Assembly (NCBI RefSeq): GCF_016901955.1
Contig: NZ_JACJLC010000022.1
Location: forward strand, 1-46,515
Direction: 5' to 3'
From: Pseudoflavonifractor phocaeensis
GTDB taxonomy: Bacteria > Bacillota > Clostridia > Oscillospirales > Oscillospiraceae
DNA length: 46,515 nt
Both the position numbers and the translations under genes were made by a program. Of this stretch, positions 31,485 through 41,779 are shown one piece after another. Under the pieces are notes generated by a model, which was not told where the DNA came from, ran no database searches, and saw only the letters and a program-made list of their open reading frames with translations. Each line of letters starts with the position of its first letter. The first letter of the stretch is position 1.

Positions 31485-34079
31485 ATGCCGCCAGCCACCA
31501 CCCCCATGATGCGACAATATTTGAAAATGAAGGAGCTCCACCCGGACTGCATCCTGTTTTTCCGTCTGGGGGATTTCTATGAGATGTTCAATGAGGACGC
31601 CAAGCTGGTGTCCTCTGAGCTGGACCTCACCCTCACCAGCCGGGACCGGGGCAAGCCGGAGGACCAGCGCACCCCCATGTGCGGCGTGCCCTATCACAGC
31701 GCGGACTCCTACATCGCCCGGCTCATCAACAAGGGCTACAAGGTGGCCATCTGTGAGCAGATGGAGGACCCGGCGGCGGCCAAGGGGCTGGTGGACCGGG
31801 ACATCATCCGCATCATCACTCCCGGCACCGTCATGACCGACTCCATGCTGGAGGAGGGCCGCAACAACTATATCTGCGCCCTGTACGCCGACTCCGCCGG
31901 TTGGGGGCTGTGCTTCTGCGACATCTCCACCGGCCAGGTGGGGGCAGCCTCCTTCTCCGGGGTAGAGGAGGAGCACCTGTACAACGAGCTGGGCCGGTTT
32001 GCCCCCCGGGAGGCGGTGCTGTCCGATGGGGCCTACAGCGACCAGCAGCTGCTGGACTTCCTCACCCACCGGCTGAACTGCCGGTGCGAAAACGGGGGAG
32101 AGGCCCGGTTCCGGCCGGACGCCGCCCGGCAGGCGGCGGAGGACCAGTTTTCCGCCGGGCTGGAGCAGCTGCCCCAGGGGGACGACCACGCCCTCCAGGC
32201 GGTGGGTGGCCTGCTGTCCTACCTGTACGAGACCCAAAAGACCGACCTGTCCCACCTGTCCGTCCTGACCTGGTACGCCGGGGGGCAGTTCATGGAGCTG
32301 GACCTTACCGCCCGGCGGAACCTGGAGCTCACCGAGACCCTCCGGTCCCAGGAGAAAAAGGGCTCCCTGCTGTGGGTGCTGGACAAGACCCGCACCCCCA
32401 TGGGCCGCCGGCTCATCCGCGCCTGGCTCCAGCGGCCCCTGCTGTCTCCGGTGGCCATCACCCGCCGGCTGGGTGCGGTGGAGGACCTGGTGACGGACTC
32501 CCTCACCCGGGACGAGGTGGTGAGCACCCTGCGGGCGGTCACCGATCTGGAGCGGCTCATCGGCCGCATCGTCTATGGCACTGCCGGTGGGCGGGATCTG
32601 GTGGCTCTGTCCGCCGGTCTGGGGAAGCTCCCCCGGCTGCGGGAGCTGCTCTCCCCCTGTTCCTCCGCCCTGCTGACCTCCCTCACCGGGGAGCTGGACG
32701 ACCTGCCCGACCTGCGGGCCCTCATCAGCCGGGCCATCGTGGACGAGCCCCCCTTCTCCGTCCGGGAGGGCGGCTTCATCCGGCCGGGCTACGACGCCGA
32801 GGTGGACCGGCTGCGGGACATCCTCACCGGCGGCAAGGACCTGGTGGCGGGGGTGGAGGCCCGGGAAAAGGAGCGCACCGGCATCAAGAGCCTGAAGGTA
32901 GGCTACAACAAGGTATTCGGCTATTACATTGAGGTCTCCAAGTCCTATTATGACCAGGTGCCCGAGGACTACATCCGCAAGCAGACTCTGGTGAACTGCG
33001 AGCGCTACATCACCCAGGAGCTGAAGGACCTGGAGCACGAGATCCTTTCGGCCCAGGACAAGATCACCGCCCTGGAGTTCAACCTGTTCTGTGACCTGCG
33101 GGAAAAGGCCGCCGCCCTGGTTGGAGAGATCCAGCGTTCCGCCGCCGCTGTGGCCCAGGTGGACGTGCTGGCCTCCTTTGCCACCGTGGCCGCCGAAAAC
33201 GGCTACTGCCGGCCGGAGGTAGATCTGTCCGACGCCATCGAAATCACCGAGGGCCGCCACCCGGTGGTGGAAAAGATGCTCAGGGACAGTCTCTTTGTCC
33301 CAAACGATACCCATATGGACGGCAGGGCCCACACCGTGGCCATCATCACCGGCCCCAACATGGCGGGCAAGTCCACCTATATGCGCCAGGTGACCCTCAT
33401 TGTCCTGATGGCTCAGATGGGCTCCTTTGTCCCCGCCAGATCCGCCCGCATCGGGGTGGTGGACCGGGTGTTTACCCGGATCGGGGCCAGCGATGATCTG
33501 GCCGCCGGCCAGTCCACCTTTATGGTGGAGATGACCGAGGTGGCGGAGCTGCTGAAAAACGCCACCAGCAAGAGCCTGCTCATCCTGGACGAGATCGGCC
33601 GGGGCACCTCCACCTACGACGGTATGTCTATCGCCCGGGCGGTGCTGGAATACTGCGCCGACAAGAAAAAGCTGGGGGCCAAGACCCTTTTCGCCACCCA
33701 CTACCACGAAATCACCGCCCTGGAGGGAGTCATCCCCGGGGTGGAGAACTACAACATCGCCGCCAAGAAGAAAAAGGACGACATCCTCTTTTTGCGGAAG
33801 ATCGTCCGGGGGGGCGCCGACCAGAGCTACGGCATCGAGGTGGCCAAGCTGGCCGGGGTGCCCGATAAGGTCATCGCCCGGGCCAGGCAGATCCTGGCCG
33901 AGCTGGAGGCCGGGGGCATCCAGGCCCCCGGGCCGGTGGAAAAGCCGGCGGCGGACCAGGTCTCCCTGCTGGATATGGGGGGCAACGAGGTGGCCCGGCG
34001 GCTGCGGCTGGCGGATCTGAACACTCTCACCCCCATTGAGGCCATGAATTTGTTATTTGAGTTGAAAAAGCTGGTGTGA
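31485..34079 (+). CDS. mutS: DNA mismatch repair protein MutS
   Basis: An 864-residue MutS1 that recognises base mismatches and small loops. The mismatch-binding domain I carries the Phe-x-Glu motif in GDFYEMFNEDA. The connector, lever and clamp domains follow. The ATPase domain has Walker A GPNMAGKST near residue 622, LLILDEIGRGTSTYDG, and the ATHYHEI motif. Length is typical, and the frame is intact. ATG at 31485 has AGGAG eight bases upstream. It stands in the canonical miaB-mutS-mutL order of Clostridia, here interrupted by the RAYT and a CPBP protease gene. Confidence 0.97.
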   Translation: MPPATTPMMRQYLKMKELHPDCILFFRLGDFYEMFNEDAKLVSSELDLTLTSRDRGKPEDQRTPMCGVPYHSADSYIARLINKGYKVAICEQMEDPAAAKGLVDRDIIRIITPGTVMTDSMLEEGRNNYICALYADSAGWGLCFCDISTGQVGAASFSGVEEEHLYNELGRFAPREAVLSDGAYSDQQLLDFLTHRLNCRCENGGEARFRPDAARQAAEDQFSAGLEQLPQGDDHALQAVGGLLSYLYETQKTDLSHLSVLTWYAGGQFMELDLTARRNLELTETLRSQEKKGSLLWVLDKTRTPMGRRLIRAWLQRPLLSPVAITRRLGAVEDLVTDSLTRDEVVSTLRAVTDLERLIGRIVYGTAGGRDLVALSAGLGKLPRLRELLSPCSSALLTSLTGELDDLPDLRALISRAIVDEPPFSVREGGFIRPGYDAEVDRLRDILTGGKDLVAGVEAREKERTGIKSLKVGYNKVFGYYIEVSKSYYDQVPEDYIRKQTLVNCERYITQELKDLEHEILSAQDKITALEFNLFCDLREKAAALVGEIQRSAAAVAQVDVLASFATVAAENGYCRPEVDLSDAIEITEGRHPVVEKMLRDSLFVPNDTHMDGRAHTVAIITGPNMAGKSTYMRQVTLIVLMAQMGSFVPARSARIGVVDRVFTRIGASDDLAAGQSTFMVEMTEVAELLKNATSKSLLILDEIGRGTSTYDGMSIARAVLEYCADKKKLGAKTLFATHYHEITALEGVIPGVENYNIAAKKKKDDILFLRKIVRGGADQSYGIEVAKLAGVPDKVIARARQILAELEAGGIQAPGPVEKPAADQVSLLDMGGNEVARRLRLADLNTLTPIEAMNLLFELKKLV

Positions 34080-39670: not shown

Positions 39671-40183
39671 ATGGGATTGTTTGACGAACTGCGGCGGCTG
39701 GCCCGCCCCTACGAGGACGAGGCAGTAGAGGACGAGTACGAGGACGAGTTTGAGCCCGTCTCCCGCAGCGAGCGGATGGACCGCACCGGCGGCGACCGGA
39801 TCGAGCGCAAGGCCGTCAAGAGCCAATCCACCCAGGAATCCACCGGCAGCTTCTATTCCGCCGACAGCGAGCGCCGCAGCAACAAGGTGGTCAACATCCA
39901 CACCACCACCCAGCTCCAGGTGGTGCTGGTAAAGCCCGAGCGGTTTGAGAACGCCAGTGAGATCGCCGACCACCTGCGCGAGAAACGCACCGTGGTCCTC
40001 AATCTGGAATCCACCAACAAGGATATCGCCCGCCGCCTGCTGGATTTCCTGTCCGGCGTGGCCTACGCCAACGAGGGCAAGATCAAGAAGGTGGCCATCT
40101 CTACTTACATCATCACGCCCTACAACGTAGATATCCTGGGCGATCTCATCGACGAGCTGGAGAACAACGGCCTGTATTTCTAA
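39671..40183 (+). CDS. sepF: Cell division protein SepF
   Basis: A 170-residue SepF. The N-terminal 15 residues (GLFDELRRLARPY) are the amphipathic membrane-binding helix. An acidic, disordered linker follows (residues 16-75), and the folded SepF domain spans about 78-170 (VVLVKPERFENASEIADHLR; TNKDIARRLLDFLSG). It tethers FtsZ to the membrane and shapes the septum. ATG follows AGGAGG by eight bases. The last 54 bases (40130-40183, DILGDLIDELENNGLYF) recur twice downstream; the complete gene itself is intact. Confidence 0.95.
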   Translation: MGLFDELRRLARPYEDEAVEDEYEDEFEPVSRSERMDRTGGDRIERKAVKSQSTQESTGSFYSADSERRSNKVVNIHTTTQLQVVLVKPERFENASEIADHLREKRTVVLNLESTNKDIARRLLDFLSGVAYANEGKIKKVAISTYIITPYNVDILGDLIDELENNGLYF

Positions 40184-40230
40184 CATGGCCACCGGGCCCC
40201 GCCGCAGGCGGGGCGGCGGTTACGCCGTTC

Positions 40231-40387
40231 AAGCGTTTTTGCGCAGCAAAAACCTTGATGCCGGGCGAATTCACTTCGCCCGCGCAGATATAAAACCGGG
40301 GCCCCCGCACGATGCACAGCATCGGGTGGGGCGGACATCCTGGGCGATCTCATCGACGAACTGGAAAACAACGGGCTGTATTTCTAA
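40231..40387 (+). repeat. 103-base palindromic element fused to a copy of the sepF 3' end (unit 1)
   Basis: Bases 40231-40333 form a palindrome-rich element: TTTTTGC-GCA-GCAAAAA, GGGCGAA-TTCAC-TTCGCCC, and CACGATGC-ACA-GCATCG. Bases 40334-40387 then repeat the last 17 codons and stop of sepF, with only synonymous changes (GAC, GAA, GAA, GGG). The frame is open back to a stop at 40256-40258 but has no ATG, GTG or TTG start, so it is not a normal gene. The 47 bases before it hold a GC-rich hairpin. Confidence 0.9.
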
Positions 40388-40441
40388 AAGTACGTTCAGA
40401 AGAGCACCGTCCACGTTGTTTCGCCGGGAGTCCGGCGTCCC

Positions 40442-40598
40442 AAGCGTTTTGGCGGAGCCAAAACCTTGATGCCGGGCGAATTCACTTCGCCCGTGCAGAT
40501 CAAATCCCGGGGTCCCCGCACGATGCCCGGCATCGGGTGGGGCGGACATTCTGGGCGATCTCATCGACGAACTGGAGAACAACGGGCTGTATTTCTGA
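40442..40598 (+). repeat. 103-base palindromic element fused to a copy of the sepF 3' end (unit 2)
   Basis: The same layout as 40231-40387 and the same length: a 103-base element (40442-40544), about 90 % identical by eye, with the left hairpin changed to GTTTTGGC-GGA-GCCAAAAC so that pairing is kept. It is joined at the same codon to the sepF 3' end (40545-40598). Differences from copy 1 are synonymous, and the stop is TGA instead of TAA. Confidence 0.9.
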
Positions 40599-40704: not shown

Positions 40705-41436
40705 ATGCTGACACCGCAGGAAGTCTCTGAACACGCCTTTACCAAGGCATTCAACGGATACAACATGACAATGGTGGACGAATTTCTGGATATCCTGACG
40801 GCGGACTATACCTCCCTCTACAAGGAAAACGCCACCCTGAAGGCCAAGATGAAGGTGTTGGTGGACAAGGTGGAGGAGTACCGCTCCACCGAGGACGCCA
40901 TGCGCAAGGCCCTGATGACCGCCCAGAAGATGGCCGACGACATGGTGGCCGAGGCCGAGAGCAAGCGGGATCAGCTGATGCAGAACGCCGAGGCCGACGC
41001 CAAATCCCGTATGGCCCAGCTCCAGCAGTCCGTCCGGGACGAGGAGCTGCGCCTGGCCGCCGCCCAGCAGGCCACCGCTTCCTACGTGGACAAGCTGAAG
41101 GAGCTCTATCAGCACGAGATGGACTATCTCACCGGCCTGTCCAAGCTGACCGCGCCCGCCGTCCCCGTCTCCGCCGACCCGGTGGGGGATACCGCCCGGG
41201 CCATCGAGGAGAACGTGGAAAAGCTGATCCAGTCCGAGGAGGCCGAGAACGCCCCCGCCCAGCCCTCGGAAGAGTCCTCCAGCCTGTATGCCGAGCTGAT
41301 GGAGCTGAGCAACAAGAGTGAGCCCGAGCCCCAGCCGAAGCCCCAGCCCGCGGAAGAGGATCCGGTGCTGTCCGAGCCCACCCGGCGTATTGATTTCTCC
41401 AACCTCCAGTTTGGGAAGGATTACGAAATCCGCTGA
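40705..41436 (+). CDS. divIVA: DivIVA domain-containing protein
   Basis: A 243-residue DivIVA. The N-terminal lipid-binding motif (MLTPQEVSEHAFTKAFNGYN) and the first coiled coil (MVDEFLDILTADYTSLYKEN) are typical, followed by a long coiled coil to about residue 140. The C-terminal 100 residues are acidic, Pro-rich and variable (EPEPQPKPQPAEED), ending DFSNLQFGKDYEIR. DivIVA marks negatively curved membrane at poles and septa and recruits division or cell-wall proteins. It follows sepF, as in most Firmicutes. ATG has GGGGGAA upstream. The last 20 coding bases plus stop are duplicated directly behind the gene. Confidence 0.93.
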   Translation: MLTPQEVSEHAFTKAFNGYNMTMVDEFLDILTADYTSLYKENATLKAKMKVLVDKVEEYRSTEDAMRKALMTAQKMADDMVAEAESKRDQLMQNAEADAKSRMAQLQQSVRDEELRLAAAQQATASYVDKLKELYQHEMDYLTGLSKLTAPAVPVSADPVGDTARAIEENVEKLIQSEEAENAPAQPSEESSSLYAELMELSNKSEPEPQPKPQPAEEDPVLSEPTRRIDFSNLQFGKDYEIR

Positions 41437-41465
41437 CCTGGGAAGGATTACGAAATCCGCTGACC
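41412..41465 (+). repeat. Perfect 27-base tandem duplication of the divIVA 3' end
   Basis: Bases 41412-41438 and 41439-41465 are identical and contain GGGAAGGATTACGAAATCCG, stop codon TGA and CC. The first copy ends the divIVA gene (GKDYEIR, stop); the second is noncoding. Confidence 0.95.
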
Positions 41466-41536: not shown

Positions 41537-41548
41537 CATACGCAAAAT

Positions 41549-41779
41549 GCTGTGACGGGGACGAGTAGCCATCCCACCCCTGCCCAGAGAGCCGCCGATC
41601 GGTGCGAGGCGGTCAGGGCGGCTGGCGAAGATCACCCCGGAGCGGCCCGCTGAACCCACAGTAGGCGGGCACGGCTGGCCCCGTTACCGGCTATTGAGGG
41701 GTCCCGGTCTGCCCGGGACAACGAGAGTGGTACCGCAGAGGTGTGCGCCTTTGTCTCTTGGGAGACAGGGGCGCTTTTT
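41549..41779 (+). promoter_or_regulatory. Isoleucine T-box leader of ileS
   Basis: A T-box riboswitch that senses uncharged tRNA-Ile. Stem I is seen from GACGGGGACGAGTAG on, with AGAGAG (41585-41590) and the GGTGCGA distal loop motif (41601-41607). The likely specifier is ATC (41631-41633) in GAAGATCACC. The T-box core AACGAGAGTGGTACCGC is at 41720-41736. The terminator is a 13-bp stem (41745-41757 with 41762-41774) and TTTTT. Uncharged tRNA-Ile should favour the antiterminator and ileS expression. Confidence 0.93.

What the first reader, a model, noticed from the sequence alone, without database searches (positions are those of the whole stretch)
40130..40598. Serial copies of the sepF 3' end, each fused to a 103-base palindromic element
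Seen: the last 54 bases of sepF (40130-40183) recur at 40334-40387 and 40545-40598. Both copies follow a 103-base element joined at the same codon (before DILGD). Across 17 codons all differences are synonymous, including TAA to TGA. The displaced tails have no start codon now. Inference: purifying selection acted on each tail while it was the true gene end. A simple model is an element that inserts near the 3' end of sepF and supplies a fresh, recoded 3' end, pushing the old one downstream, as integrases do at tRNA genes. Inserted lengths would be 204 and 211 bases. I know of no such small element at a division gene.
Basis: partly seen in the sequence, partly recalled or inferred. Interest (0 to 1): 0.85.

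Follow-up and report, generated by a model that had tools for sequence, protein, structure and literature searches.

The report
Guide-bearing element with spare gene end
A short non-coding DNA element in gut bacteria sits inside the ends of many genes together with a spare copy of each gene's end, so the gene keeps working, and it often carries a short stretch that matches the exact point where it sits; it appears to be a previously undescribed kind of mobile element.

Summary
The 104-base unit is a structured non-coding core with no Rfam match; 24 copies were found in this genome. In 19 of 22 testable copies a second copy of the neighbouring gene's end starts at the core's end; so too in 60 of 72 copies from nine other genera, one genome closed. 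Before the core lies a 'guide', the reverse complement of the junction: 10 of 19 own-genome copies, 50 of 61 genus copies and 33 of 60 hold-out copies, controls 1-2%. Guide and junction co-vary (49/54 own, 5/54 swapped). Displaced ends stay coding (129 synonymous, 22 nonsynonymous). Three copy-bearing genomes lack RVT_1, Y1 and IS110-type transposase hits. Mechanism unproven: intron-like RNA pairing favoured, plain recombination the main rival. In the window, unit 1 fails the guide test at its own junction and looks chimeric.

The parts
40090..40099 (+). second sepF target site J' (GGTGGCCATC), at the junction used in Pseudoflavonifractor phocaeensis (L174, L183); 9 of its 10 bases match the unit-1 guide-like stretch. 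The same 10-mer also occurs at 31742, so by itself the match is weak
40122..40132 (+). junction site J spanning the upstream exon and tail start (ACAACGTAGAT here; the unit-2 guide pairs with ACAACGTGGAC, so 9 of 11 match)
40130..40183 (+). tail 0: gene end now in use
40184..40193 (+). guide-like stretch of unit 1 (CATGGCCACC); matches J', not J (score against J only 10.5)
40194..40229 (+). GC-rich stretch of unit 1 that can form 5' hairpins (read by eye; not folded separately)
40230..40333 (+). structured core of unit 1, covariance model 94.6 bits
40334..40387 (+). tail 1: displaced sepF end, 4 synonymous differences
40388..40408 (+). spacer of unit 2 (21 nt)
40409..40419 (+). guide of unit 2 (GTCCACGTTGT), 75 nt after the start of tail 1
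40420..40440 (+). 5' hairpin-like stretch of unit 2 (read by eye)
40441..40544 (+). structured core of unit 2, covariance model 97.5 bits
40545..40598 (+). tail 2: displaced sepF end, 5 differences, stop TGA

Best explanation
This is a non-coding 'spare-end' mobile element. One block, [copy of the gene's end with its stop - short spacer - guide - structured core], sits at a point (motif GA|GG) inside the last coding codons of a gene. The gene reads into the block's own copy of its end and stops there, so it is not broken; the native end lies unused or rarely used behind the core. The guide is complementary to the junction on both sides of the insertion point. Most likely it acts as RNA, like the internal guide of an intron: it pairs with the upstream exon end and with the start of the downstream tail, and so directs insertion into, and perhaps removal from, alleles of the same gene. 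Because the block rebuilds its own target, it could insert again, which would give tandem arrays such as the two units in the window. SHOWN: anatomy, generality, guide-junction complementarity in most sampled genus copies and about half of the less selected ones, covariation, block-wise difference between occupied and empty alleles at three genes, coding conservation of both tails, gene-specific lineages. INFERRED: that the guide directs movement, that RNA is the active form, that splicing or reverse splicing occurs. UNKNOWN: the enzyme, if any.
For: Tail duplication starting at the core's end in 19/22 own-genome copies and 60/72 hold-out copies (control pairings 6/332). Guide score 22 or more in 50/61 genus copies against 1.1% of 610 mismatched pairings, in 10 of the 19 own-genome copies with a repeat, and in 33/60 against 2% of 600 in the hold-out. 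Covariation at internal positions: own 49/54 Watson-Crick, swapped 5/54, from nine double changes in seven gene groups. Junction motif over 28 junctions: G at -2 in 23, A at -1 in 17, G at +1 and +2 in 19 each. Block-wise difference from empty alleles at gdhA, fhs, gpmI. Core: 17 of 31 pairs with double compensatory changes, one position where G-U is the commonest pair. RNA fold of one infB block forms the junction-guide helix, z = -7.5. Guide starts 72-88 nt after the junction in 30/50 and 21/33 guide-bearing copies, at infB 74-78 although spacer sequences differ. Displaced tails: 129 synonymous against 22 nonsynonymous codon differences, 0.59 nonsynonymous expected if the displaced copy drifted. 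Tandem arrays.
Against: Some blocks lie antisense at gene starts (L005, L036, the group L044/L051/L052/L070, L088), where splicing of the host mRNA cannot matter. Eleven of 61 genus copies, 9 of 19 own-genome copies and 27 of 60 hold-out copies miss the guide threshold, the window's unit 1 among them (10.5). The 5' junction residue is not conserved as group I introns require, and no known intron family matches. Some displaced tails are lost or decayed: gpmI of G015 lost its stop codon. Cores in one genome are no more alike than cores of different genomes (0.721 against 0.718), so no recent jumping to new genes is seen. Presence and absence could reflect precise loss by recombination between the tails. 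No transcript data exist here. Where the tails differ under the guide, it matches the first tail 14 times and the second 4 times of 21, so pairing with the second tail is not specially kept.
Confidence: 0.5

Rival explanations
1. The block spreads only by ordinary homologous recombination of transferred DNA. The gene body is the left arm and the displaced tail is the right arm, so the block loops in or out at the junction. The guide-junction helix then has only a cis role in the mRNA or none in movement.
For: Genomes with 10-23 core matches can lack RVT_1, Y1_Tnp and Transposase_20 hits together (G029, G080, G110). Tails are conserved coding sequence, good homology arms. At infB first and second tails share genome-specific residues and codons. 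Arrays that look like unequal crossing-over. Cores cluster by gene.
Against: Does not explain why the guide spans the junction and tracks its changes, nor the recurring junction-guide distance, nor how blocks for many different genes arose.
Confidence: 0.3
2. Classical transposition of the core with a long target-site duplication (about 75 nt); gene-end bias arises by selection.
For: Exact direct repeats flank many copies; both gene ends and gene starts are hit.
Against: In the informative cases the spacer after the first tail is not repeated after the second and the flank after the second tail is the native one. Duplicated coding length varies from 22 to 139 nt while the junction-guide distance is often near 76. 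No burst of similar copies in a genome.
Confidence: 0.08
3. Simple tandem duplication or unequal crossing-over of a gene end plus a terminator-like repeat.
For: Arrays with units 91-99.5% identical exist.
Against: One core between two tails is common, at many unrelated genes, with the same core end at the junction and a gene-specific guide.
Confidence: 0.06
4. A cis-regulatory 3' RNA element kept for its effect on mRNA stability or termination; the second tail is a by-product.
For: Core and guide helix are conserved as RNA; most copies lie sense to the gene (48 of 59 assigned pairs).
Against: Antisense copies at gene starts; patchy presence among congeners: fhs 3 of 20, gpmI 6 of 16 with the block.
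Confidence: 0.06

Closest known systems
Mobile ORFs of fungal mitochondria that carry a foreign gene carboxy-terminus (Glomus atp6, atp9, cox2, nad3; Allomyces atp6 as cited there), PMC3630166, passages read
   Same: An insert near the gene's 3' end brings a diverged copy of that end; the native end is displaced downstream.
   Different: Those inserts encode a homing endonuclease (mORFs of roughly 0.4-1.0 kb in its Table 2) and sit in mitochondria. Here there is no ORF of its own, about 200-260 nt, a guide, and many bacterial genes.
Group I introns (internal guide sequence pairing with both exons); PMC3984707 seen in search listing and start of abstract, details recalled
   Same: A guide complementary to the sequence on both sides of the insertion point, close to a folded core.
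   Different: No conserved U at the 5' site, core only about 100 nt, no Rfam match, and the insert carries its own gene end with a stop.
IS110 elements with bridge RNA (PMC11208160, PMC11208158; search listing and start of abstracts)
   Same: A non-coding RNA with target-matching sequence beside a mobile element.
   Different: No recombinase in the block; Transposase_20 hits are absent from several core-rich genomes; the inserted block contains a gene-end copy.
Phages and islands integrating at gene 3' ends with restoration of the end (for example e14 at icd; recalled, from no call)
   Same: A fresh, synonymously different gene end replaces the native one.
   Different: No integrase in the block, no single attachment site; each block is specific to its gene.
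Bacterial MITEs and REP elements (PMC10969869, one passage and start of abstract; PMC2817692, listing and start of abstract)
   Same: Short, hairpin-rich, non-coding, dispersed.
   Different: Gene-end copy, gene-specific guide, no within-genome burst.

Membership tests
Group I intron | Match to the group I covariance model in Rfam | tested here: not met
   No hit at E up to 1 on the cores of the window region and six further loci
Group I intron | 5' exon ends in U paired with G of the guide | tested here: not met
   Last exon base is A in 17 of 28, T in 5 of 28; the exact junction can shift by a base or two
Group I intron | Self-splicing | not testable with these tools
   Needs transcript or in vitro data
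Group II intron / retroelement | Rfam match and resident reverse transcriptase | tested here: not met
   No Rfam hit; no RVT_1 match at E 1e-6 in G000 (24 copies) and five other core-bearing genomes of the 20 searched; ten of the 20 have one
IS200/IS605 (Y1) type element | Y1 transposase available in the genome | tested here: not met
   No Y1_Tnp match in G000 and nine other core-bearing genomes of the 20 searched; seven of the 20 have one
IS110 bridge-RNA element | Recombinase in the element or genome | tested here: not met
   No recombinase in the block; Transposase_20 present in G000 (2) and eight others, absent from core-bearing G119, G130, G127, G128, G110, G029, G080
Integrase-type insertion with gene-end restoration | Native end displaced, fresh end supplied | tested here: met
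   gdhA, fhs, gpmI; polarity at sepF not shown
Integrase-type insertion with gene-end restoration | Integrase gene and a common attachment site | tested here: not met
   Blocks of about 200-260 nt are too short for one; junctions differ by gene beyond GA|GG. Integrases elsewhere in the genome were not searched
MITE | Terminal inverted repeats shared by copies | not tested
   No dedicated test; the inverted match found is guide to junction, specific to each gene
Mitochondrial mORF gene-end hybrid | Endonuclease ORF | tested here: not met
   The block is about 200-260 nt; no family search of its short chance ORFs was run

The most novel reading that the evidence does not exclude
A new class of RNA-guided, intron-like mobile element about 200 nt long. 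Its guide pairs with both exon edges of its host gene. The gene makes the same protein whether the block is left in (its own end is used) or removed (the native end is used), and this is why both ends stay under coding selection.
Probability: 0.3. Interest if true: 0.95.

Novelty: categorically new. Interest (0 to 1): 0.86.

Why it matters
An element without a protein of its own that brings a spare gene end and a matching guide would be a new solution to a problem every mobile element has: how to sit in an important gene without breaking it. The guide-junction covariation makes target choice directly testable, and a guide of 11-15 nt could in principle be re-aimed. It also confounds annotation and phylogeny of gene ends in a whole family of gut bacteria.

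Tried and rejected
Rfam search for a known RNA family: nothing on the cores in the window region and six loci; only T-box leaders and weak microRNA-family hits away from the cores. A resident enzyme: RVT_1, Y1_Tnp and Transposase_20 are each missing from several core-bearing genomes of the 20 searched, so none is required for carriage; other recombinases and integrases were not searched. Simple mRNA splicing as the whole story: weakened by antisense copies at gene starts. Intermediates with an unrelated first tail were sought among the five repeat-less copies and the three: L067, L069, L082, L086 (one gene) and L092 keep the first tail and lack a displaced one; L229, L233 and L235 were not resolved; none was found. 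The first automatic frame choice put most genes on the wrong strand and was replaced. There, 11 of 59 pairs are assigned antisense (20 synonymous, 20 nonsynonymous); about four (L009, L041, L050, L094) look wrongly assigned and one pair (L047) got no frame, so I use the sense group for counts. The first guide control let same-gene junctions in and was replaced. The first covariation count (own 84/140, swapped 20/140 Watson-Crick) included edge positions chosen for matching, so it was repeated on internal positions. Flank comparison at infB is muddied by another element family: after the last tail G015, G006, G002 and G016 score 89-104, but to G010, which itself carries that family; G013 scores 55 after the first tail and 48 after the last. 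Literature: eight answered searches showed no description of this element in the papers listed; the library lacks most subscription journals and all preprints.

Full report
CHECK OF THE OBSERVATION. The sepF gene ends at 40183. Its last 54 bases recur at 40334-40387 and 40545-40598 with 4 and 5 differences, all synonymous. The stretch before each copy is a 104-base core (40230-40333, 40441-40544), and both cores meet the tail at the same codon.

GENERALITY. A BLAST search with the first unit found it in all 20 genomes of the genus (own included) and in one other, 21 of 60 genomes searched. I read 69 loci taken from those hits; some were chosen because they were paired, so they are not a random sample. 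In 73 of 78 element copies the flanks hold direct repeats with score 40 or more; dropping one place read twice (L010 = L053) and one run of N (L055) leaves 71 of 76. Control pairings have median 19 and 95th percentile 31.5; their top 1% is high because the same genes recur. The repeated piece is in most cases the 3' end of the gene upstream; by my reading of C-termini these include infB, gdhA, gpmI, fhs, rnc, nusA, lepA, uvrA, rubrerythrin and response regulators (names not tested against a family library). For a less biased sample I aligned 44 cores, built a covariance model and scanned the window's genome: 24 copies, with 150 of 1380 candidates scored, so a lower bound. Of 22 with enough flank, 19 have the repeat, and in all 19 the downstream copy starts between -4 and +3 of the core's end; the search began at -4. 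As a hold-out I took 60 loci from nine genomes of nine other genera, among the best matches listed and including a closed 4.3 Mb genome. Of 72 copies, 60 have the repeat starting at the core's end; 12 do not, two of which have a repeat starting elsewhere; control pairings reach 40 in 6 of 332. Some of these copies are inner members of arrays. Draft-assembly error is therefore not the explanation of the pattern. The core was found in 52 of 150 genomes of the family (44 of 106 genera; strict filters). In a class-wide draw of 291 genomes it was found in 3: the window's own, one more of the family, and one weak match outside it. Named records with similar sepF are Flavonifractor, Pseudoflavonifractor, Intestinimonas and other Oscillospiraceae.

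THE GUIDE. Between the first tail and the core many copies hold a stretch that is the reverse complement of the junction, reaching several bases into the gene upstream of the duplicated end and several into it. Scored against its own junction it reaches 22 or more in 50 of 61 genus copies; against junctions of other genes, in 1.1% of 610 pairings. In the own-genome set it does so in 10 of the 19 copies with a repeat, in the hold-out in 33 of 60 against 2% of 600. So about half of the less selected copies pass this threshold. Where the junction differs between genomes carrying the block at the same gene, the guide has changed with it. At internal positions 49 of 54 comparisons pair with their own guide and 5 of 54 with the other genome's; these comparisons are not independent, but they come from nine double changes in seven gene groups: infB, nfo, gpmI, fhs, one further gene, rubrerythrin (two) and an ABC-transporter gene (two). 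Two positions fail in some genomes (gpmI in L085; the group L044/L051/L052). Where first and second tail differ, the guide matches the first tail 14 times and the second 4 times of 21. The junction motif is GA|GG: over 28 junctions G at -2 in 23, A at -1 in 17, G at +1 and +2 in 19 each. Among guide-bearing copies the guide starts 72-88 nt after the junction in 30 of 50 and 21 of 33; gdhA (about 100) and gpmI (about 50) are examples of other distances. At infB the spacer sequence differs strongly between genomes while the distance stays at 74-78. Folded as RNA, one infB block forms the junction-guide helix and the core hairpins, z = -7.5. In the core, 17 of 31 pairs show double compensatory changes; at one pair G-U is the commonest type, which favours RNA over DNA hairpins.

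WHAT IS INSERTED. At gdhA the empty genomes G018 and G002 have one tail followed by a terminator-like hairpin. In G004 and G015 that hairpin follows the second tail, and the first tail is followed by a spacer hairpin, guide and core. At fhs (G015) and gpmI (G006, G015, G011, G005) the same holds. Local alignment of the flank after the last tail to empty alleles gives 62-115 in gdhA G004, fhs G015 and these four gpmI cases, against 20-22 after the first tail. Scores the other way are gdhA G000 (78 after the first tail, 29 after the last) and G003 (95, 24), both to G009, and sepF G015 (68, 20) to G011; G009 keeps spacer and guide and G011 a truncated unit, so I count them as degenerate, not empty. 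Uninformative: gdhA G001, G007, G008, G014, G016; fhs G017, G019; gpmI G012; sepF G000 (24, 36). infB is muddied by another element family (see Tried and rejected). So at three genes occupied and empty alleles differ by [first tail - spacer - guide - core] at the junction. Insertion is the natural reading, but an empty allele could also be produced by recombination between the two tails.

SELECTION ON THE TAILS. Over 48 sense pairs there are 129 synonymous and 22 nonsynonymous codon differences; 11 pairs are identical and 25 of the 37 others differ only synonymously. If the displaced copy drifted neutrally, 0.59 of differences should be nonsynonymous; 22 of 151 has binomial P about 1e-29, treating differences as independent although several genes recur in several genomes. 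Of 49 rows read, 33 encode exactly the same peptide up to the same stop, 11 the same length, 5 differ. In the hold-out there are 80 synonymous and 27 nonsynonymous differences over 39 ungapped sense pairs, 23 with identical peptides. Against continuous use of the displaced tail: it is missing at several loci and has lost its stop at gpmI of G015. Some antisense blocks at gene starts also differ mainly synonymously (L005: 3 to 0), others do not (L088: 5 to 4); splicing cannot explain conservation there. Recent exchange between strains and ongoing use both remain possible.

HOW IT SPREADS. Cores at the same gene in different genomes are alike (0.855, 80 pairs). Cores in the same genome are no more alike than any others (0.721 over 113 pairs, against 0.718 over 1460). 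The nearest relative is at the same gene for 37 of 51. So blocks are gene-specific lineages passed or transferred at their gene; no burst within a genome is seen. None of three enzymes is needed for carriage: RVT_1, Y1_Tnp and Transposase_20 are each missing from core-bearing genomes, and all three from G029, G080 and G110; G110 is 86% complete. Other recombinases were not searched.

THE WINDOW. Unit 2 has the standard layout: tail 1, 21-nt spacer, guide GTCCACGTTGT 75 nt after the tail start. The same guide (one base different in Intestinimonas) and junction occur in Intestinimonas, Galloscillospira and other Flavonifractor records. Today's window junction matches it at 9 of 11 positions. Unit 1 does not match its own junction (10.5). 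Its guide-like stretch matches 9 bases of another sepF site at 40090, used with its own junction in Pseudoflavonifractor phocaeensis (L174, L183), yet its 3' end joins at the unit-2 junction. The simplest account is a chimera of two sepF element types; a 9-base match alone is weak evidence. Among the 19 congeners with a readable sepF end (both G015 tails are), G000 has two units, G015 one, G004 a core without displaced tail, G011 a truncated unit, G013 a unit with unread bases, G007 and G014 a short tail remnant, and 12 none.

COMPARISON AND VERDICT. The closest concept in print that I saw is the mitochondrial mobile ORF that brings a foreign carboxy-terminus and displaces the native one (PMC3630166, passages read); those encode endonucleases. 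The guide resembles the internal guide of group I introns (recalled), but membership tests fail (no Rfam match, no U at the 5' site). Eight answered searches of an open-access library listed no description of this element, which is not proof of absence. The anatomy is strongly supported, the guide well supported as a common feature, the block model supported at three genes, the chemistry unknown. After checking every field against the calls I lowered several claims (guide rate in less selected copies, flank comparison, window unit 1) and left the odds as they were.

Noticed in passing
window 41412-41465: The end of the gene after sepF is also repeated, 27 bases twice head to tail, with no core between; perhaps a remnant after loss of a block.
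   Followed up: no
L099, L100, L101, L102, L103, L104 (infB 3' ends): A second, different hairpin element (TTCTGCTTCTTGCGGAGTGCC...CTTCTTAACGCTGCGG and variants) is also followed by a further copy of the infB end, so other families may behave alike.
   Followed up: partly
L104, L105, L112 (infB), L191 (sepF): A third repeat (GAAGCCCAGCGAAGCGGGTTCGG...GACGAGG and variants) also precedes short copies of gene ends.
   Followed up: no
L005, L036, L044, L051, L052, L070, L088: Blocks lie antisense at gene starts and carry a spare gene start instead of a spare end.
   Followed up: partly
window 41543-41761: T-box leader (124 bits) upstream of a large ORF that reads like isoleucyl-tRNA synthetase (name not tested).
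   Followed up: no
L026 and L025 (G014, G007 sepF): Short sepF tail remnants directly after the stop without any core, likely scars of lost blocks.
   Followed up: partly
L260, L271 (closed genome G119): Arrays of three cores close together.
   Followed up: no
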